From: Streptomyces lilacinus
GTDB taxonomy: Bacteria; Actinomycetota; Actinomycetes; Streptomycetales; Streptomycetaceae
Reading direction: 5' to 3'
Assembly: GCA_000715685.1 (NCBI GenBank)
Contig: KL569466.1
Span: 7,831 to 15,657, forward strand
DNA: 7,827 bases
Shown here: piece after piece, positions 1 to 7,827 of the stretch
Numbering within the stretch: position 1 is the stretch's first letter
Layout of the letters: every line of letters starts with the position of its first letter
Notes under the pieces: generated by a model
What the model saw: only the letters and a program-made list of their open reading frames with translations
What the model was told of the DNA's origin: nothing
Database searches by the model: none
Made by a program: the position numbers and the translations under genes

Positions 1-1065
1 ACCCTCGCGGACGACGCGCAGCCGCTCGTCGGTGAGGTTCAGCGTCCACGCGGCGACGGTCAGCCGCTCCTCCTCGTAGGTGTCGAGGAGCCCGGGGCCC
101 GCCAGGCCGCCGATGACGAAGGCGAGCTTCCAGCCCAGGTTGAACGCGTCCTGGATGCCGGTGTTCATGCCGAGCCCGCCCGCTATGGAGTGGACGTGGG
201 CCGCGTCGCCGGCGAGGAAGACCCGGCCCACCCGGAAGCGGTCGGCCATGCGGACGTTGATGCGGTGGACGGAGAGCCAGACGGGGTCGGTCAGCCGTAT
301 TCCGGGCATCCTGGCGTGCCGGTCGAAAAGCCGCTGGAAGGACTCCACCGACGGGGGCACGAGGCGCCCTTCGGCGTCCCGCTCGGGGCCGGCCTGCAGC
401 TGCCAGTGGTCGCCGTCGCGGAAGGGACAGAGCAGGATCCCGCCGTCCTCGTCGAACCACTGGTGCCAGAAGGCGGGGTCGAGGCCGTCGGCGCGCACGT
501 CGCCGATCACCATGCACTCCTCGGCCTCGGTCTCTCCCTCGAAGCCGACGCCGAGGGCCTTGCGCACGGGGCTGCGGCCGCCGTCGCAGCCGACCAGATA
601 GGCGGCGGTCACCGTCCGGCCGTCGGCGAGGGTCGCGGTCACCCCGTGCTCGTCCTGCGCGAACTCGGTGAGCTCCGCGGCCAGTTCGACCTCGACCCCG
701 TACTCGGCCAGCTTCTCGCGGAGGATCTCCTCGGTGCGCCACTGCGGGATGATCAGGCCGCTGGCGTAGGGCGCGTCGGGGGTGGGGGCGCGGTCCCCGA
801 AGGCGACGTGGTCGGCCACCGCGACACCGTCCCGGTACTTGCGCAGGGCGATGTGCTCGATGCCGGAGGCCGTGGCGGCCTCCCCCACGCCGAGGTCGTC
901 GAAGAGCTCGCGGCTGCGCTGATTGAGCCCCTTGCCCCGCGAGGAGCGGTGGAACGCCGGGGACTTGTCGATGATGCGCACGGGAACGCCGGCGCGGGCG
1001 AGGGTGCAGGCGAGCGTGAGTCCGGTCGGCCCGGCGCCCACGACGAGTACGGCGGTGTCGGTCAT
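1..1065 (-). CDS. FAD-dependent aromatic monooxygenase (class A flavoprotein hydroxylase), 3' end beyond window
   Basis: Residues 1-355 are present and the frame runs open off the left edge, so the C-terminus is missing; family members are usually about 500-540 residues. The protein begins MTDTAVLVVGAGPTGLTLAC, with the GxGxxG FAD-binding fold at residues 10-15. It has the DG motif (GCDGGRSPVRKALG, D161-G162) and the GD motif (FLAGDAAHVHS, D287), followed by GGLGMNTGIQDAFNLGWKL. These are the three signatures of the PheA/TfdB-like FAD_binding_3 family (PF01494), which hydroxylates aromatic or polyketide substrates with NAD(P)H and O2. The ATG at 1065 has GGAGGG (1080-1075) about 9 nt upstream, which fixes the start. 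It is divergent from a TetR regulator, a common arrangement in which the regulator represses the monooxygenase and responds to its substrate. The substrate cannot be read from the sequence. Confidence 0.9.
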   Translation of the reverse strand, partial: MTDTAVLVVGAGPTGLTLACTLARAGVPVRIIDKSPAFHRSSRGKGLNQRSRELFDDLGVGEAATASGIEHIALRKYRDGVAVADHVAFGDRAPTPDAPYASGLIIPQWRTEEILREKLAEYGVEVELAAELTEFAQDEHGVTATLADGRTVTAAYLVGCDGGRSPVRKALGVGFEGETEAEECMVIGDVRADGLDPAFWHQWFDEDGGILLCPFRDGDHWQLQAGPERDAEGRLVPPSVESFQRLFDRHARMPGIRLTDPVWLSVHRINVRMADRFRVGRVFLAGDAAHVHSIAGGLGMNTGIQDAFNLGWKLAFVIGGLAGPGLLDTYEEERLTVAAWTLNLTDERLRVVREG

Positions 1066-1175
1066 GGCGGAAGTCCCTCCGTCGGTCGGTGACTCCATGA
1101 AAGACCAACCCGATTCGAAAACGCAACCGGGTAACAAAAGTTTCTGAGTAACGAGAAATCTGCTACCGTTGATCC
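1066..1175. promoter_or_regulatory. Divergent promoter/operator region between monooxygenase and tetR
   Basis: This 110-bp region is clearly more AT-rich than the flanking genes and lies between two divergent starts. It contains an imperfect dyad TTTCT-N8-AGAAA (1141-1158), a direct repeat GTAAC (1131-1135 and 1148-1152) and a second dyad ACCCG-N15-CGGGT (1108-1132). A TetR dimer normally binds a short palindrome in such an interval. The 1141-1158 dyad is the best candidate because it falls just upstream of the tetR -10 box. No -35/-10 pair for the monooxygenase stands out. The operator assignment is an inference. Confidence 0.5.
1164..1169 (+). promoter_or_regulatory. -10 box (TACCGT) of tetR, probably leaderless transcript
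   Basis: TACCGT fits the actinobacterial TANNNT -10 consensus and is followed by only 6 nt before the ATG at 1176. Transcription would therefore start at or next to the A of the start codon. No Shine-Dalgarno sequence precedes the ATG, which agrees with a leaderless mRNA. The hexamer TTTCTG (1141-1146), 17 nt upstream, is only a poor match to a -35 box. Confidence 0.5.
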
Positions 1176-1916
1176 ATGAGCGAGCCAACGGGACTGCGAG
1201 AGCTCAAGAAGCAGCGCACGCGCCAGGCGCTGTCCGACACCGCCATCGAGCTCTTCCTCAAGCGCGGCTTCGACCAGGTCTCGGTCGCGGACGTCGCGGC
1301 GGCCGTCGAGGTGTCCAAGCCGACGCTGTTCCGCTACTTCCCGGCCAAGGAGGACCTGGCGCTGCACCGCATCGCCGACCACCAGGGCGAGGCGGCGCGC
1401 GTCGTCCGGGACCGCGAGCCGGGCCTGTCACCCCTCGCGGCGCTCCGCGCGCACTTCCACGCGCGCCTGGACGCCCACGACCCGATCACGGGCCTCAACG
1501 ACAGCCCGATCGTGCGGGCGTTCAACGACATGCTCTACGGGACGCCGAGCCTGCTCGCCCGCCTCGTCCGCTACGCCGACCGGGACGAGGAGCTGCTGGC
1601 CGAGGCCCTCGCCGAGGTGGAAGCGACGGCGAAGACGGCACCGGCCGGCGGACTGACGGCGCGCCTCGCCGCCGCGCAGATCATCACCGTGCACCAGCGC
1701 CTCGCCCAGGAGAACTGGCGCAAGCTCGCCGCCGGCGACACCGCCGCCGGCGCCCTGCCCGAGGCGCACGCCGACGCCGAGCTCGCCTTCGACCTGCTCG
1801 GCGCCGGCCTCGGCGCCCGTTACGACGCAGGCGCCCGATACGACGCGGGCGCCCGTCATGACGGCGGGCCCTCCGCTCACTCCCGCGGCTCGACGCCCGC
1901 GCGCCGCAGACCGTAG
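1176..1916 (+). CDS. TetR/AcrR family transcriptional regulator
   Basis: A 246-residue protein beginning MSEPTGLRELKKQRTRQALS. The N-terminal TetR DNA-binding domain (about residues 11-60) shows the typical KKQRTRQALSDTAIELFLKRGF helix. The helix-turn-helix follows at SVADVAAAVEVSKPTLFRYF and ends in PAKEDL. The C-terminal part (about 80-210) is helical and ligand-binding; it is too variable to name an effector. The ATG at 1176 lacks a Shine-Dalgarno sequence but sits 6 nt after a TANNNT box, so a leaderless start is likely. It probably represses the divergent monooxygenase and itself. Odd points: residues 213-230 are three copies of a GARYDA-like hexapeptide encoded by tandem 18-bp repeats, followed by a low-complexity basic tail, and the last 40 bp overlap the 3' end of cimA on the other strand. 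The tail after about residue 212 may be a lineage-specific extension. Confidence 0.88.
   Translation: MSEPTGLRELKKQRTRQALSDTAIELFLKRGFDQVSVADVAAAVEVSKPTLFRYFPAKEDLALHRIADHQGEAARVVRDREPGLSPLAALRAHFHARLDAHDPITGLNDSPIVRAFNDMLYGTPSLLARLVRYADRDEELLAEALAEVEATAKTAPAGGLTARLAAAQIITVHQRLAQENWRKLAAGDTAAGALPEAHADAELAFDLLGAGLGARYDAGARYDAGARHDGGPSAHSRGSTPARRRP
1812..1865 (+). repeat. Three tandem 18-bp repeats in the tetR 3' end
   Basis: The three units are 1812-1829, 1830-1847 and 1848-1865. Each begins GGCGCCCG and continues (T/A)(T/A/C)(A/C)(C/T)GACG-like; units 1 and 2 differ at two positions, and unit 3 is more diverged. They are in frame with tetR and encode GARYDA, GARYDA and GARHDG. The unit length is a multiple of three, so copy number can change without breaking the frame. 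Confidence 0.85.
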
Positions 1917-3496
1917 GCGTAGGCGTCGTCCAGGGCCTGCCAGGACGCGGCGATGACGTTCTCGCCGACGCCGACCGTGGACCACTCGCCGTGCTCGTCG
2001 CTGGTGGAGATCAGCACCCGGGTCGTCGACCCCGTGCCCAGGCTGCCCTCCAGGGTGCGGACCTTGTAGTCCGTCAGCTTCAGCGAGGCCAGCTGCGGAT
2101 AGATGCGCTCGAGGGCGACCCGCAGCGCCCGGTCCAGGGCGTTGACCGGGCCGTTGCCCTCGGCGGTGGCGACGAGGCGCTCGCCCTTGGCCCACAGCTT
2201 CACGGTCGCCTCGTTGGCGTGGGTGCCGTCGGGGCGGTCCTCGACGATGGCGCGCCAGGACTCGACGCGGTAGTAGCGGCGGGTGCGGCCCTCGACCTCC
2301 TCGCGCATCAGCAGCTCGAAGGAGGCGTCCGCGGCCTCGTACGTGTAGCCGGCCAGCTCGCGCTCCTTGACCCGCGCCACGATGCGGCCGATGAGCTCGC
2401 GGTCGCCGCCGAGGTCGATGCCGAGCTCCTTGCCCTTGAGCTCCACCGAGGCGCGGCCGGCCATGTCGGAGACCAGCATCCGCATGGTGTTGCCGACCCG
2501 CTCGGGGTCGATGTGCTGGTAGAGGTCCGGGTCGACCTTGATCGCGGAGGCGTGCAGCCCGGCCTTGTGGGCGAAGGCGGACAGGCCCACGTACGGCTGG
2601 TGGGTGGCCGGCGTGAGGTTGACGACCTCGGCGATGGCGTGCGAGACGCGGGTCATCTCGGCCAGCTTGCCCGGCGGCAGGACCCGTCGGTCGTACTTGA
2701 TCTCCAGGGCGGCCACGACGGGGAAGAGGTTGGCGTTGCCGACGCGCTCGCCGTAGCCGTTGGCCGTGCACTGCACGTGGGTGGCGCCGGCGTCCACGGC
2801 GGCGAGGGTGTTGGCGACCGCGCAGCCGGTGTCGTCCTGGGCGTGGATGCCGAGCCGGGCGCCGGTGTCGGCGAGGACGGTGCGCACGACCGCCTCGACC
2901 TGGGCGGGGAGCATGCCGCCGTTGGTGTCGCAGAGCACGACGACGTCGGCGCCCGCCTCGTGCGCGGTGCGGACGACCTCGGTGGCGTAGCCGGGGTTGG
3001 CGCGGTAGCCGTCGAAGAAGTGCTCGCAGTCGACGAAGACGCGGCGGCCGTGCGAGCGCAGGTGGGCGACGGTGTCGCGGATCATGGCGAGGTTCTCGTC
3101 GAGCGTGGTGCGCAGGGCGAGCTCGACATGACGGTCGTGGGACTTGGCCACCAGCGTGACGACGGGGGCCTCCGAGTCGAGCAGGGCGGCGACCTGCGGG
3201 TCGTCCTCGGCCCGCACCCCCGCCCTGCGGGTGGCGCCGAAGGCGACGAGCAGGGCGTGCCGGAAGTCGATCTCCTCGCGGGCGCGCCGGAAGAACTCGG
3301 TGTCCCGGGGGTTGGCGCCGGGCCAGCCGCCCTCGATGAAGCCCACGCCGAAGTCGTCGAGGTGGCGGGCGATGGTCAGCTTGTCCGCGACGGTGAGGTT
3401 GATGCCTTCGCGCTGCGCGCCGTCGCGCAGGGTGGTGTCGAAGACGTGGAAGCCGTCGTCGGGACGTTCGTCGGGGCCGTCGGTTGCGTCCGTCAT
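1877..3496 (-). CDS. cimA: (R)-citramalate synthase
   Basis: A 539-residue enzyme condensing pyruvate and acetyl-CoA to (R)-citramalate, the first step of the threonine-independent route to isoleucine. The catalytic HMGL-like TIM barrel (about residues 15-290) opens with FDTTLRDGAQREGINL (R24 and D25 are catalytic/metal residues). It includes GIHAQDDTGCAVAN (H218, Q220) and TANGYGERVGN (about 244-254). HKAGLHASAIKVDPDLYQHIDP (from H310) follows in the linker, and a LeuA-type allosteric dimer domain fills about 400-535. The long FIEGGWPGANPRDTEFF segment and the overall length match the CimA/LeuA2 branch rather than classical LeuA. The ATG at 3496 is preceded by AGGAG (3512-3508) at 11 nt. Q220 stands where LeuA-family enzymes usually have the second His of an HxH metal site. 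A leader with an intrinsic terminator lies upstream. The gene ends 40 bp inside the convergent tetR. Confidence 0.93.
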   Translation of the reverse strand: MTDATDGPDERPDDGFHVFDTTLRDGAQREGINLTVADKLTIARHLDDFGVGFIEGGWPGANPRDTEFFRRAREEIDFRHALLVAFGATRRAGVRAEDDPQVAALLDSEAPVVTLVAKSHDRHVELALRTTLDENLAMIRDTVAHLRSHGRRVFVDCEHFFDGYRANPGYATEVVRTAHEAGADVVVLCDTNGGMLPAQVEAVVRTVLADTGARLGIHAQDDTGCAVANTLAAVDAGATHVQCTANGYGERVGNANLFPVVAALEIKYDRRVLPPGKLAEMTRVSHAIAEVVNLTPATHQPYVGLSAFAHKAGLHASAIKVDPDLYQHIDPERVGNTMRMLVSDMAGRASVELKGKELGIDLGGDRELIGRIVARVKERELAGYTYEAADASFELLMREEVEGRTRRYYRVESWRAIVEDRPDGTHANEATVKLWAKGERLVATAEGNGPVNALDRALRVALERIYPQLASLKLTDYKVRTLEGSLGTGSTTRVLISTSDEHGEWSTVGVGENVIAASWQALDDAYAYGLRRAGVEPRE

Positions 3497-3528
3497 TGCT
3501 GCTCTGACTCCTGTGAGGATGTCGGTCT

Positions 3529-3543
3529 ACCGGAATGACCGGT
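3529..3543. repeat. Short inverted repeat in the cimA 5' region
   Basis: ACCGG-N5-CCGGT forms a perfect 5-bp dyad (3529-3533 and 3539-3543) in the untranslated region 33 nt upstream of the cimA ATG. An alternative overlapping pairing is CGGTC (3523-3527) with GACCG (3537-3541). It could be a small RNA hairpin or a protein site; nothing more can be said from the sequence. Confidence 0.3.
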
Positions 3544-3609
3544 TCCACCGTCCCCCTATGATCCCTCGCCCTGCGTTTCGCGCGGCGGGATGGGCCGGAA
3601 AACGCAAAA

Positions 3610-3631
3610 ACCTCTCGCGGGTGCGAGAGGT
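3610..3631 (-). terminator. Intrinsic terminator/attenuator upstream of cimA
   Basis: Read on the minus strand, ACCTCTCGC and GCGAGAGGT form a 9-bp perfect stem with an ACCC loop, followed directly by TTTTGCGTTTT. This is a textbook intrinsic terminator, unusual in this GC-rich setting for having a U-tract. It lies 150 nt after the transporter stop and 113 nt before the cimA ATG. It may end transporter transcription, act as an attenuator in the cimA leader, or do both. A second dyad, TGCGTTT/AAACGCA (3600-3606 with 3572-3578), overlaps the U-tract. Confidence 0.75.
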
Positions 3632-3663
3632 CTGCGCGCGGGTCTGGGACGACGGTGTCCGCT

Positions 3664-3669
3664 TCGCAC
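3664..3669 (-). promoter_or_regulatory. Candidate antiterminator segment of the cimA leader
   Basis: Minus-strand GTGCGA here is complementary to TCGCAC at 3626-3621, which covers part of the 5' arm and the loop of the terminator hairpin. Pairing of the two would prevent the terminator from forming. The same segment can instead pair with upstream CCGCCTCG (3686-3679) through CGAAGCGG, with one mismatch. Mutually exclusive pairings like these are the layout of an attenuator. Six base pairs is short, so this remains a hypothesis. Confidence 0.3.
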
Positions 3670-3686
3670 GGGGTGGTACGAGGCGG

Positions 3687-3737
3687 TCACTGCGGACCGG
3701 CGCGCCTGCTGCCAATAATCATGGCGAACGGGAGCAT
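3687..3737 (-). CDS. Candidate cimA leader peptide with tandem Ile codons
   Basis: A 16-codon frame reading MLPFAMIIGSRRAGPQ, then TGA. Residues 7-8 are two consecutive isoleucines, both encoded by ATT, a codon almost absent from the neighbouring genes, which use ATC. The ATG at 3737 has AGGA (3748-3745) 7 nt upstream. Alternatively CAGGAT (3749-3744) could be a -10 box and the message leaderless. A start at the inner ATG (3722) gives 11 codons. The stop overlaps a small hairpin CGGTC-N6-GACCG (3699-3684) and is followed 56 nt later by the intrinsic terminator. Leader-peptide attenuation of branched-chain amino acid genes is well established in bacteria and has been predicted in actinomycetes; that this peptide is translated and regulatory is inference. 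The ATTATT could instead be promoter sequence. Confidence 0.35.
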   Translation of the reverse strand: MLPFAMIIGSRRAGPQ

Positions 3738-3780
3738 GGGGACATCCTGGCACAGCCCCGGCCCGCGATGCGGACGAGTC

Positions 3781-5050
3781 TCAGGATGCGGGCACCCGGT
3801 CCGCCCCCGGGGCGGGTTCGGGCGTGCCGCCCACCCGCTTGAGGTCGATGTCCCGCGTCTCGCGCATCGTGAGGTAGACGCCCAGCGACACCGCCGCGCA
3901 GCCCGCGACGTACCAGGAGAAGCCGGACTCCATTCCGCTCTTCTTGAACCACAGGGCCACGTACTCCGCCGTCCCGCCGAAGAGCGCGTTGGCGATCGCG
4001 TACGGCAGGGCGACGCCGAGGGACCGCACGCCCGTCGGGAAGAGCTCCGCCTTCACACAGGCGTTGATCGAGGTGTAGCCGGTGATCACGACCAGCGCCA
4101 GCAGCGACAGGCCCAGGGCCGGCCAGAAGGACCCGGCGTCCCGGAGCATCGCCATGATGGGCACGGTCAGAACTGTCTCTTATACACATGTATAAGAGAC
4201 AGAAGACGATCAGCGCGCAGAAACTCACGAGCGTCGCCGTCTGCTTGGGCAGGCCCGCGGTGTTGGAGAGGTACTTCGTCAGATAGGTCGTGTACGTGTA
4301 GTAGGCGACCGTGCCGCCCATGGTCAGCGCGACGACGAGGAGCGCCTCGCGCTTGTGCCGCAGCAGCGCCCTGATGGTGCCGCGGTCCTCGGGGGCGGTG
4401 CCGGCCTCCTCGTAGGCCTCCGTCTCCAGCATGTTGCGCCGCAGGTAGAAGATGACGGCGGCGCCCAGCGCGCCCACGACGAAGGGGATGCGCCAGCCCC
4501 AGCTGTGCAGTTCACCGGCGGTGAGCGTGTGCTGGAGCAGGATCAGGAGGCCCAGGCCCAGGATCTGGCCGGCGGTCATCGACACGTACTGGAAGCTGGA
4601 GGCGAAGCCGCGCCGGCCGGGTGCGGAGGCCTCCGTGAGGTACGTCGCGCTGGCCGCGTACTCGCCGCCGACCGACAGGCCCTGCAGGAGCCGGGCGACG
4701 AGCAGGACGGCGGCGCCGCCGTAGCCGGCGACCGCGTAGGTCGGGGCGGCCGCGATGAGCACGGCGGACGCCGACATCAGCGTGACCGTCAGGGTGAGCG
4801 CCGCCTTGCGGCCGCGCCGGTCGCCCACCCGGCCCAGGAGCCAGCCGCCGACGGGCCGCATGAAGAACCCGACGGCGAAGATGCCGGCGGTGTTCATGAG
4901 CTTGGCGGTGTCGTTGCCCGCGGGGAAGAAGGCCCCCGCGAAGTAGGTGGCGAAGCTGGCGTAGACGAACCAGTCGAACCACTCGACCATGTTGCCGGCC
5001 GAGCCGACCCAGATCTTCTTCCAGTGCTGTCCCTGGTTTCCCTGTTCCAT
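3781..5050 (-). CDS. MFS transporter, metabolite:H+ symporter type (broken in this sequence by an assembly artefact)
   Basis: Two collinear pieces of one major facilitator. Piece 1 (5050 to about 4203) gives residues 1-282. It has GNMVEWFDWFVYASF before TM1, motif A GRVGDRRGRK (73-82) between TM2 and TM3, RLLQGLSVGGEYAASATYL (120-138), TM5-TM7, and the start of TM8 (TLVSFCALIVF). Piece 2 (about 4172 to 3781), in another frame, gives LTVPIMAMLRDAGSFW, then TM10-TM12 with INACVKAELFPTGVRSLGVA and IANALFGGTAEYVALWFKKSG, ending PAS. These signatures fit the KgtP/ProP-like symporters of organic acids or osmolytes; the substrate is unknown. Between the pieces lie 30 bp of transposase mosaic-end sequence, and about 30 codons (end of TM8, the second LSDRxGRR loop, start of TM9) are missing. 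The biological gene is probably intact at about 440 residues. The ATG at 5050 is the only upstream candidate, since an in-frame TGA lies at 5059-5057, but it has no Shine-Dalgarno sequence. It lies between ilvE and cimA. Confidence 0.85.
4173..4202. other. Head-to-head Tn5 mosaic ends (Nextera adapter) left in the assembly
   Basis: The first 17 bases, CTGTCTCTTATACACAT, match the 19-bp hyperactive Tn5 mosaic end. The remaining 13, GTATAAGAGACAG, match the end of its reverse complement. A full junction of two mosaic ends is 38 bp; this one is that sequence with 8 central bases lost. No IS50 or cargo DNA lies between the ends and no 9-bp target duplication flanks them. In the minus frame it encodes CLLYMCIRDS, a typical adapter-derived peptide. 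It is therefore adapter sequence joined into the contig, not a transposon. Confidence 0.95.
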
Positions 5051-5102
5051 GGAGGATCACGGTGCTGGAACGGCACTGCCGCGACAAGGGTTCAGGCGGC
5101 AA

Positions 5103-5141
5103 CGATCCCGCGTACTTGCGTGCGTTGCGTACGCGGGATCG
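5103..5141 (-). terminator. Strong hairpin after ilvE, likely terminator
   Basis: A perfect 13-bp stem, CGATCCCGCGTAC (5103-5115) with GTACGCGGGATCG (5129-5141), and a 13-nt loop. It lies 57 nt beyond the ilvE stop and about 50 nt before the transporter start. There is no U-tract, as is common for actinomycete hairpin terminators. It is symmetric and could act on either strand, or be a protein-binding dyad upstream of the transporter. Confidence 0.6.
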
Positions 5142-5163
5142 CGGCCGTCGGGTGCGAGGCCTC

Positions 5164-5199
5164 AGCGGCGTCGGCGGCGCCAGTGGCGTCGGCGGCGTC
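5164..5199. repeat. Two tandem 18-bp repeats at the ilvE stop codon
   Basis: Units 5164-5181 and 5182-5199 share 16 of 18 bases, with core GGCGTCGGCGGCG. The second unit contains two of the three bases of the ilvE stop codon (TGA at 5200-5198). The repeat therefore lies just past the reading frame and may reflect slippage in GC-rich sequence. Confidence 0.7.
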
Positions 5200-6283
5200 A
5201 GGCCAGGCGGTGCATCCAGCCGTGGGTGTCCTCGGCGGCGCCGGTCTGGATGTCCAGGAGCGCCTTGCGGAGCTTCATGGTGACCTCGCCCGGCTGCCCG
5301 TCGCCGACGGTCCAGTTGCCCGTGGTGGACTTCACCGAGCCGACCGGGGTGATGACGGCGGCGGTGCCGCAGGCGAAGACCTCGGTGAGGGTGCCGTCCG
5401 CGTTGCCGTCCTTCCAGTCGTCGACCGAGATGCGGCTCTCGCCGACCTCGTAGCCGAGGTCGGCGGCGATCTCGAGGAGGGAGGCGCGGGTGATGCCGGG
5501 CAGCAGGGTGCCGGTGAGGCGCGGGGTGAGGATGCGGTTGCCGTACACGAAGTACAGGTTCATGCCGCCCATTTCCTCGATCCAGCGGCGCTCCACCGCG
5601 TCGAGCCAGACGACCTGGTCGCAGCCCTGCTCGGCGGCCTGCGCCTGGGCGACGAGGGAGGCGGCGTAGTTGCCCGCGCACTTGGCGGCGCCGGTGCCGC
5701 CGGGGGCGGCGCGCACGTACTCCTGGGACAGCCACACCGAGACCGGCTTGACGCCACCGGGGAAGTACGCGCCGGCGGGCGAGGCGATGACCACGAAGAG
5801 GTACTCGTTGGAGGGCCGCACGCCCAGGCCGACTTCGGTGGCGAACATGAACGGGCGCAGGTAGAGCGACTGCTCGCCGGAGCCCGGCACCCACTCCTTG
5901 TCCTGCCGCACCAGCGCGTCGCAGGCCTCGATGAAGGTCTCGACCGGCAGCTCGGGCATGGCCAGGCGGCGGGCGGAGTCCTGGAAGCGCTTGGCGTTCT
6001 CCTCGGGGCGGAAGGTGGCGACGGTGCCGTCGGGCTGCCGGTACGCCTTGAGGCCCTCGAAGATGGACTGGGCGTAGTGGAGCGTCATGTTCGCCGGGTC
6101 GATCGGCAGCGGCGCGTACGGAACGAGCTGGGCGTCGTGCCAGCCGCGGCCCTCCGTCCACTTGATGGTGACCATGTGGTCGGTGAAGTGGCGGCCGAAA
6201 CCGGGGTCGGCCAGGATGCGCTCGCGCTCCGCGGGGGACAGCGGGTGCGAGGAAGGCTTGAGCTCGATCGTGGGCGTCGTCAT
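5198..6283 (-). CDS. ilvE: Branched-chain amino acid aminotransferase
   Basis: A 361-residue PLP fold-type IV aminotransferase that interconverts Ile, Leu and Val with their 2-oxo acids using glutamate/2-oxoglutarate, in the cytoplasm. The PLP lysine is K201 in [14 protein letters not shown]. Other family marks are [15 protein letters not shown] (68-82), [11 protein letters not shown] (140-150), [18 protein letters not shown] (225-242), GTLLPGITR (258-266) and [15 protein letters not shown] (301-315). Length and motifs match the actinobacterial enzymes of about 360 residues. The ATG at 6283 ([16 protein letters not shown]) has AAGGA about 9 nt upstream; an in-frame start at 6325 would add 14 residues unlike the family and is not used. 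The gene follows leuB in the same direction with a 190-bp gap containing a hairpin and a possible promoter. It supplies the last step for the products of CimA and LeuB. Confidence 0.96.
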
Positions 6284-6383
6284 GAATGCGTGTCCTTCAC
6301 GTTGTGTGCGGCGGACCGCGCTCACTCCGTCCCGGTGGGATCGAGACGTCCGAGCTTCGCCTCATATCGCGGCCCCTCGTTCG

Positions 6384-6389
6384 ATTATC
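6384..6389 (-). promoter_or_regulatory. Possible -10 box of ilvE
   Basis: Minus-strand GATAAT closely resembles a -10 hexamer, in an AT-rich pocket about 100 nt upstream of the ilvE start. The matching -35 area (TTTTCC/TTTCCG, 17-18 nt upstream) is weak. The box sits within a dyad: CGAT-T-ATCG (6382-6390) inside CCCCTC/GAGGGG (6373-6378, 6396-6401), which may be an operator. Confidence 0.35.
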
Positions 6390-6416
6390 GCTCGTGAGGG
6401 GCGCGACGGAAAATGT

Positions 6417-6456
6417 GCGCGCGGCCGGGAATCGATGGTGGCATCCGGCCGCGCGC
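6417..6456 (-). terminator. Hairpin terminator after leuB
   Basis: A perfect 12-bp stem of GCGCGCGGCCGG (6417-6428) with CCGGCCGCGCGC (6445-6456) and a 16-nt loop, 17 nt after the leuB stop. On the minus strand it is followed by ACATTTTCC, a weak U-tract. Position and strength make it a likely leuB terminator, separating leuB from ilvE. Confidence 0.65.
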
Positions 6457-6473
6457 CTGTACGGCGGCCGGGA

Positions 6474-7529
6474 TCAGCCCGTTACGGAAGCGGCGAGAAC
6501 CCGGGATACGAGGGCGTCGCCGACCTCGTCCGTGCTGCGGGCCACGCCGTCCCGCGCCGCCACGTCGGCGGTCACCGCGCTCTCGACGCGGGCCGCCTCC
6601 GCCTCGTAGCCGAGGTGGCGCAGGAGGAGGGCGACGGACAGGACGGCGGCCGTCGGGTCGGCCTTGCCGGTGCCGGCGATGTCGGGCGCCGAGCCGTGCA
6701 CGGGCTCGAACATCGACGGGAAGGTCCCGGAGGCGTTGATGTTGCCGGAGGCGGCGAGTCCGATTCCGCCGGTGACGGCGGCGGCGAGGTCGGTGAGGAT
6801 GTCGCCGAAGAGGTTGTCGGTGACGATGACGTCGAAGCGCTCGGGCTGGGTGACGAAGAAGATCGTCGCGGCGTCGACGTGCAGGTAGTCGGTGGTGACC
6901 TCGGGGTACTCCCGGCCGACCCGGTCGAAGATGTTCTTCCACAGGTGGCCGGCGTGCACGAGGACGTTGTTCTTGTGCACGAGGGTGAGCCTGCGGCGCG
7001 GGCGGGCCTGGGCGCGCTCGTAGGCGTCGCGGACCACGCGCTCCACGCCGTGGGCGGTGTTGAGGCTGACCTCGGTGGCCACCTCGGCGGGGGTGCCGGT
7101 GCGCAGCGAGCCGCCGTTGCCGACGTACGGGCCCTCGGTGCCCTCGCGGACGACGACGAAGTCGATCTCCGGCCGCCCGGCCAGCGGGGTCGCCGCGCCC
7201 GGGAGGAGCCTGGAGGGGCGCAGGTTGACGTAGTGGTCGAAGGCGAAGCGCAGCTTGAGCAGCAGCCCGCGCTCGAGCACGCCGGAGGGCACGGAGGGGT
7301 CGCCGATCGCGCCGAGCAGGATCGCGTCGTGGTCCTTCAGGGACTCCAGCTCCGCGTCGGGCAGGGTCTCGCCGGTGGCGTGCCAGCGACGGGCGCCGAG
7401 GTCGTACTCCCGGGTCTCCAGCTTGACGTCCGAAGGGAGCACGGCCGACAGGACCTTGAGGCCCTGGGCCACCACTTCGGGGCCGATACCGTCACCGGGG
7501 ATCACTGCGAGGCGGAGGCTTCGAGACAT
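6474..7529 (-). CDS. leuB: 3-isopropylmalate dehydrogenase
   Basis: A 351-residue NAD-dependent decarboxylating dehydrogenase converting (2R,3S)-3-isopropylmalate to 2-oxoisocaproate in leucine synthesis. In organisms with CimA it also oxidises 3-methylmalate to 2-oxobutyrate. [10 protein letters not shown] lies at 11-20. The substrate-binding arginines are in [13 protein letters not shown] (R94, R104) and [10 protein letters not shown] (R128). VHKNNVL carries K186, HVDA has D219, and [15 protein letters not shown] has the metal aspartates D243 and D247. The NAD site is [14 protein letters not shown] (279-292). The sequence follows the compact actinobacterial type ([19 protein letters not shown]). 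I chose the ATG at 7529 because [14 protein letters not shown] matches family N-termini. AGGAG (7547-7543) is 13 nt upstream, rather far. An in-frame GTG at 7565 would add 12 residues. It is the first gene of the minus-strand cluster. Confidence 0.95.
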
Positions 7530-7574
7530 ACCCGGGACCGTACTCCTCGTCCCGCAGAATGACACGCACCGTCC

Positions 7575-7580
7575 ACATTA
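7575..7580 (-). promoter_or_regulatory. Possible -10 box of leuB
   Basis: Minus-strand TAATGT fits TANNNT and lies 46 nt upstream of the chosen leuB ATG. The hexamer CTGTCC, 17 nt further upstream, is a partial -35 match. The box lies in the gap between leuB and the divergent gene at the right edge. Confidence 0.4.
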
Positions 7581-7659
7581 CGGACGCTTGCGAGCCGGAC
7601 AGGCCACATTCCCCGAAAACATGTGTCCGCGCCACCTGTCCCTGGGCACGTTCCCGGGC

Positions 7660-7827
7660 ATGGACACACCACGGGTGGGAATTCCCGACCGGCTGGCACG
7701 CCGGATGACGATGGCAGAACAGCACGAATACCTCCGCACCAAGCTCACCCGCCGCGGCCTGCTGCGGGCGAGCGCCGCGACGGCGGGGACCATCGCGGGC
7801 ACGGGCCTGCTGGGCACCGCCGGCACG
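7660..7827 (+). CDS. N-terminus of a Tat-exported protein, possibly a purple acid phosphatase-like metallophosphoesterase (3' partial)
   Basis: Fifty-six codons are visible before the right edge. From the ATG at 7660 the frame reads MDTPRVGIPDRLARRMTMAE, then QHEYLRTKLTRRGLLRASAA and a hydrophobic alanine/glycine-rich stretch. LTRRGLLRAS followed by ATAGTIAGTGLLGTAGT is a twin-arginine signal, so the protein is exported folded. The GIPDRLARRMTMAEQHEYL lead-in resembles, from memory, Streptomyces metallophosphoesterases, but no catalytic residue lies in the window and the function is uncertain. No good Shine-Dalgarno sequence precedes the ATG; GTG at 7675 (giving MGIPDRL) or ATG at 7705 are alternative starts. 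It is divergent from leuB. Confidence 0.6.
   Translation, partial: MDTPRVGIPDRLARRMTMAEQHEYLRTKLTRRGLLRASAATAGTIAGTGLLGTAGT

What the first reader, a model, noticed from the sequence alone, without database searches (positions are those of the whole stretch)
4173..4202. Nextera/Tn5 mosaic-end junction embedded in the chromosome sequence
Two mosaic ends face each other with 8 central bases lost. No transposon body lies between them, no target duplication flanks them, and homologous transporter sequence lies on both sides. This is untrimmed library adapter that joined two contig ends. It creates a false frameshift, and a false protein in which the transporter runs into CLLYMCIRDS and an unrelated frame. 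Any gene model or 'pseudogene' call across this point is wrong, and other contig joins in the same assembly deserve the same check.
Basis: partly seen in the sequence, partly recalled or inferred. Interest (0 to 1): 0.85.

Follow-up and report, generated by a model that had tools for sequence, protein, structure and literature searches.

The report
Sequencing-adapter scar in transporter gene
Thirty bases that match Nextera sequencing adapter sit inside a transporter gene of this bacterial draft genome, at a spot where eleven related genomes each have 86 bases of ordinary gene, so the broken-looking gene is most likely an assembly error and not biology.

Summary
Observation confirmed: window 4173-4202 is two facing, truncated Tn5/Nextera mosaic ends (17 + 13-14 of 19 bases each). 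It is an assembly artefact. The same assembly holds 1,096 exact copies of the 17-base mosaic end and 38 facing pairs; 18 of 198 relatives hold any, at most 17 copies. In a 390-kb sample, 56 of 80 mosaic-end hits run into N gaps. Longer copies continue into the Epicentre-era Nextera adaptor 1 tail (45 places; adaptor printed in PMC3699833). In 11 of 11 relatives exactly 86 bases lie between the two flanks, and G018 reads the gene in one frame. So the join both adds 30 adapter bases and hides 86 genomic ones; the net 56 is not a multiple of 3, hence the false frameshift. Eight of nine facing pairs tried could be mapped; all eight are collinear with G018 and lack 24-113 bases. Collinear flanks and the absence of any perfect 38-mer speak against mate-pair junctions; a real Tn5 insertion is practically excluded.

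The parts
4173..4189 (+). Left adapter tail: first 17 of the 19 mosaic-end bases, reading out of the left contig
   Evidence: exact match
4190..4202 (-). Right adapter tail: 13 mosaic-end bases on the - strand (14 if the T at 4189 is shared)
4203..5050 (-). N-terminal piece of an MFS metabolite/H+ symporter gene (true genomic sequence)
   Evidence: PF00083 E 2.7e-22; TIGR00883 E 1.7e-84, below its full-length cut-off; collinear with G018
3781..4172 (-). C-terminal piece of the same transporter gene, in another frame
   Evidence: PF00083 E 1.6e-4; 11 of 11 relatives carry it 86 bases from the N-terminal piece
3719..5050 (-). False ORF of 443 residues that runs through the adapter and then out of frame
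1..7827 (.). The window is exactly the stretch between two N gaps of contig C91 (N at C91:7601-7830 and 15658-15906)

Best explanation
The 30 bases at 4173-4202 match Nextera (Tn5 mosaic-end) library adapter and were most likely left by two short-read contigs whose ends were never trimmed and which a scaffolding or gap-closing step then put end to end. Shown: the adapter letters; the correct order of the flanks; 86 genomic bases between the flanks in each of 11 relatives; hundreds of further adapter tails in the same assembly, many at N gaps. Inferred: reads from short library inserts ran on into adapter, so the contigs on either side of an uncovered stretch ended in partial adapter; the scaffolder ordered them rightly and abutted them without N's because the estimated distance was about as long as the adapter tails. 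It has no biological function, and the transporter gene is probably intact in the organism.
For: Exact 17-base mosaic end facing a 13-14-base one. 1,096 exact 17-mers in the assembly, 18 of 198 relatives with any and at most 17; reversed-pattern control 0. 38 facing pairs with varied cores, tail overlap near chance. 56 of 80 mosaic-end hits in 389,726 sampled bases run into N gaps, and 56 of 212 N-gap edges carry one. Longer copies go on into the Epicentre Nextera adaptor 1 tail, 45 places genome-wide, and in 770 kb of stretches 7 into adaptor 1, 4 into adaptor 2 and 0 into two later Illumina Nextera tails; the adaptors are printed in PMC3699833. 86 bases lie between the flanks in 11 of 11 relatives; G018 reads the gene in one frame. 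8 of 8 mapped facing pairs lack 24-113 bases relative to G018.
Against: No raw reads were available, so the read-through itself is not seen. 19 of 80 sampled hits run into other sequence instead of N's or a facing end; 4 of these begin with 5-11 bases of a facing end and one with the end of a contig, the rest were not resolved. One of nine facing pairs tried (C53) had no counterpart in G018. GC of the flanks of 35 joins is 71.4% against 70.9% in the sample, so a GC-driven loss of coverage is not supported.
Confidence: 0.97

Rival explanations
1. Nextera mate-pair circularisation junction: the two ends of one long fragment, kilobases apart, joined by two mosaic ends and left in the assembly.
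For: Two facing mosaic ends are what such a junction looks like, and 59 of 105 facing pairs in other public records are the perfect 38-mer.
Against: The flanks are 86 bases apart in 11 of 11 relatives, not kilobases, and 8 of 8 mapped joins are collinear. 0 of 38 joins here is the perfect 38-mer. The tails continue into Epicentre fragment-library adaptors.
Confidence: 0.015
2. A real insertion: remnant of Tn5/IS50 or of mini-Tn5 mutagenesis in the strain's chromosome.
For: The mosaic end is a Tn5 end.
Against: No body, no 9-base duplication, 86 bases missing at the site, over a thousand copies in one assembly often at N gaps and with synthetic adaptor tails.
Confidence: 0.005
3. The adapter is an artefact, but the strain also truly lacks the 86 bases, so the gene is a real pseudogene.
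For: The assembly alone cannot show what lies in the uncovered stretch.
Against: 11 of 11 relatives have exactly 86 bases there; the other 7 mapped joins lack 24-113 bases in the same way; both pieces of the gene are otherwise open.
Confidence: 0.01

Closest known systems
Adapter contamination of public microbial assemblies (Moeller et al. 2024, BMC Genomics, PMC11536531; first of three parts read)
   Same: Untrimmed library adapter in published assemblies, concentrated at contig ends, up to 805 copies in one assembly.
   Different: There TruSeq adapter at contig ends; here Nextera mosaic ends, at N-gap edges and inside joined contigs, with genomic bases hidden under the join.
Epicentre Nextera adaptor tails in haloarchaeal drafts (records; Becker et al. 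2014, PMC4230888, passages read)
   Same: Facing mosaic ends with the same adaptor tails; that paper reports Epicentre Nextera libraries assembled with a5.
   Different: Other organisms; N's often stand between the tails. That these very records belong to that paper is inferred.
Nextera mate-pair junction (38-base double mosaic end; what it is in the protocol is recalled)
   Same: Two facing mosaic ends.
   Different: Perfect 38-mer and flanks kilobases apart; here truncated tails and flanks 86 bases apart.

Membership tests
Untrimmed Nextera adapter at a contig join | Mosaic-end sequence, orientation pointing out of genomic flanks | tested here: met
Untrimmed Nextera adapter at a contig join | Many copies in the same assembly, few or none in relatives | tested here: met
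   1,096 against at most 17 in 198 relatives
Untrimmed Nextera adapter at a contig join | Copies continue into library adaptor sequence | tested here: met
   45 places; not at the window's own join, whose tails are too short
Untrimmed Nextera adapter at a contig join | Reads at the site run from genome into adapter | not testable with these tools
   no raw reads
Nextera mate-pair junction | Perfect 38-base double mosaic end | tested here: not met
   0 of 38 joins
Nextera mate-pair junction | Flanks kilobases apart in the true genome | tested here: not met
   86 bases in 11 of 11 relatives
Tn5/IS50 or mini-Tn5 insertion | Transposon body between the ends | tested here: not met
   0 bases between the tails
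Tn5/IS50 or mini-Tn5 insertion | 9-base target duplication | tested here: not met
   2 shared bases here; 1 of 35 joins has 9

The most novel reading that the evidence does not exclude
Draft genomes built from first-generation Nextera libraries carry hundreds of adapter scars that each hide tens to a hundred or so bases of true sequence, and so are a systematic, little-noticed source of false pseudogenes in reference genome sets.
Probability: 0.35. Interest if true: 0.25.

Novelty: not a real feature. Interest (0 to 1): 0.1.

Why it matters
It is not biology, but it matters for the use of the data. The assembly is held in a set with one genome per species, is estimated 86.54% complete and has adapter in hundreds of places. 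Gene models, pseudogene calls and comparisons that touch those places are unreliable, and the joins that could be checked also hide genomic sequence, so masking the adapter is not enough.

Tried and rejected
A real Tn5 insertion, a mate-pair junction and a true deletion in the strain were considered and rejected. A join driven by overlap of the tails was tested: overlap is 0 in 24, 1 in 10 and 2 in 1 of 38, near what blunt joins give (71%, 25%, 5%), and 3 have extra bases. The idea that joins sit in GC-richer DNA was not borne out (71.4% in flanks against 70.9%). The 30-mer gave no match in the E. coli, plasmid and phage collections. The Rfam scan of the window gave nothing at gathering scores. 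The viral-contig search for the transporter found no relative. The DNA alignment mixed strands and was not used; replace it. In one search one protein (window 2-1063) was given in the wrong frame and its empty result means nothing; one search repeats it rightly. Paper searches with the mosaic end (0 papers) and with the adapter peptide CLLYTS (2 papers, unrelated by title, not opened) led nowhere. A first attempt to hand in this report was sent back with some fields out of place; the recount before this one added.

Full report
What is there. Window 4173-4202 is CTGTCTCTTATACACATGTATAAGAGACAG. Its left 17 bases are an exact Tn5/Nextera mosaic end; its right 13-14 bases are the same end in reverse, cut short. 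None of 200 shuffles matched. The window lies in contig C91 of an unnamed 7,558,468-base, 325-contig assembly and is exactly the stretch between two N gaps of that contig. The citramalate synthase gene beside it is 84% identical to Streptomyces cimA, so Streptomyces or close kin is likely (inference).

How common it is. The assembly has 520 + 576 exact 17-base mosaic ends, and 753 + 821 hits with up to 2 mismatches. Of the 198 other genomes searched, 18 have any exact copy, at most 17. The reversed pattern was found 0 times in each genome listed. Facing pairs number 38 (each listed on both strands); the exact 30-mer occurs 4 times.

Where the copies sit. I sampled 389,726 bases: C1, C2 and C5 without their last 5 to 8,378 bases, and all of C10 and C91; the choice was not random. 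There were 80 hits of the first 13 mosaic-end bases: 55 run into an N gap within 8 bases, 1 within 40, 5 face another mosaic end (counted by strand, 3 places), and 19 run into other sequence. Of these 19, 4 begin with 5-11 bases of a facing end and one reaches the end of its contig; the others were not resolved. Of 212 N-gap edges, 56 carry a mosaic end within 45 bases. So many contig ends were adapter-tailed before scaffolding (inference from this placement).

Which library. Longer copies go on into CTGATGGCGCGAGGGAGGC; CACATCTCTGATGGCGCGAG occurs at 45 places (17 + 28). In 770 kb of fetched stretches, chosen in part because they hold joins, 7 copies go on into this tail, 4 into the tail CTGAGCG, and none into either of two later Illumina Nextera tails. 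Reversed, the tails are the 3' parts of Adaptor 1 and Adaptor 2 described for the Epicentre Nextera kit in PMC3699833 (passages read). Similar tails occur in haloarchaeal drafts, and Becker et al. 2014 (PMC4230888, passages read) report Epicentre Nextera libraries; that these very records are theirs is inferred.

What is under the join. Eleven relatives have loci with both flanks; in 11 of 11 exactly 86 bases lie between the flank ends. The closest, G018 (92% identity over the N-terminal part), reads the gene in one open frame. C91 follows G018 contig C7 in order, with some stretches present in one of the two only. 86 - 30 = 56 is not a multiple of 3, which gives the frameshift and the false 443-residue ORF. 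Of 9 facing pairs tried against G018 (of 38), 8 could be mapped; all 8 are collinear, with 24, 30, 35, 37, 40, 77, 86 and 113 bases between the flanks in G018. Identity at some is only 72-78%, and the C19 pair belongs to a family with several copies in G018, of which two (C12, C6) give 76-77. The ninth (C53) has no counterpart.

How the join was made. The 38 cores have 28 distinct forms up to strand and lengths of 26 to 41. Tail overlap is 0 in 24, 1 in 10, 2 in 1, and 3 have extra bases; blunt joins of random tails give 71%, 25% and 5%. So tails of unequal length were most likely abutted. Of 35 pairs with both flanks in hand (of 38), 33 have an abutting repeat of 0-2 bases, one has 9 and one 14. 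The 9-base case is what one in-vitro Tn5 insertion would leave (recalled). None of the 38 is the perfect 38-mer, whereas 59 of 105 facing pairs in other records are. Which program abutted the tails is not known; N gaps in the sample have a median length of 265.5, and joins without N's where the true distance is short would fit a scaffolder that dropped the gap when its estimate was near zero (inference). GC of the join flanks equals that of the sample (71.4% and 70.9%), so why coverage failed there is open.

What is known. Moeller et al. 2024 (PMC11536531; first of three parts read) describe TruSeq adapter in 15,657 reference assemblies, 0 to 805 copies each, near contig ends; the part read does not treat the Nextera mosaic end. 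PMC11017572 (title and start of abstract seen) argues that many bacterial pseudogenes are technical artefacts. Searches made; I do not claim that Nextera scars are absent from print.

Verdict. Interest as biology is low; as a data-quality case it is clear.

Noticed in passing
window 1877-3496 (-), 5198-6283 (-), 6474-7529 (-): Branched-chain amino-acid genes stand around the transporter: citramalate synthase (TIGR00977), branched-chain aminotransferase (NF009897) and 3-isopropylmalate dehydrogenase (NF002898), all above their NCBIfam cut-offs.
   Followed up: partly
window 1-1065 (-) and 1176-1916 (+): A FAD-binding monooxygenase-like gene (PF01494, E 7.5e-84) stands head to head with a TetR-family regulator (PF00440, E 1.3e-14). 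The regulator's end (1916) overlaps the end of the citramalate synthase gene (1877) by 40 bases.
   Followed up: no
   Followed up: partly
L187:8118 and L156:1501: Two of 35 joins have an exact abutting flank repeat, of 9 and of 14 bases; the 9-base one fits both halves of a single in-vitro Tn5 insertion.
   Followed up: partly
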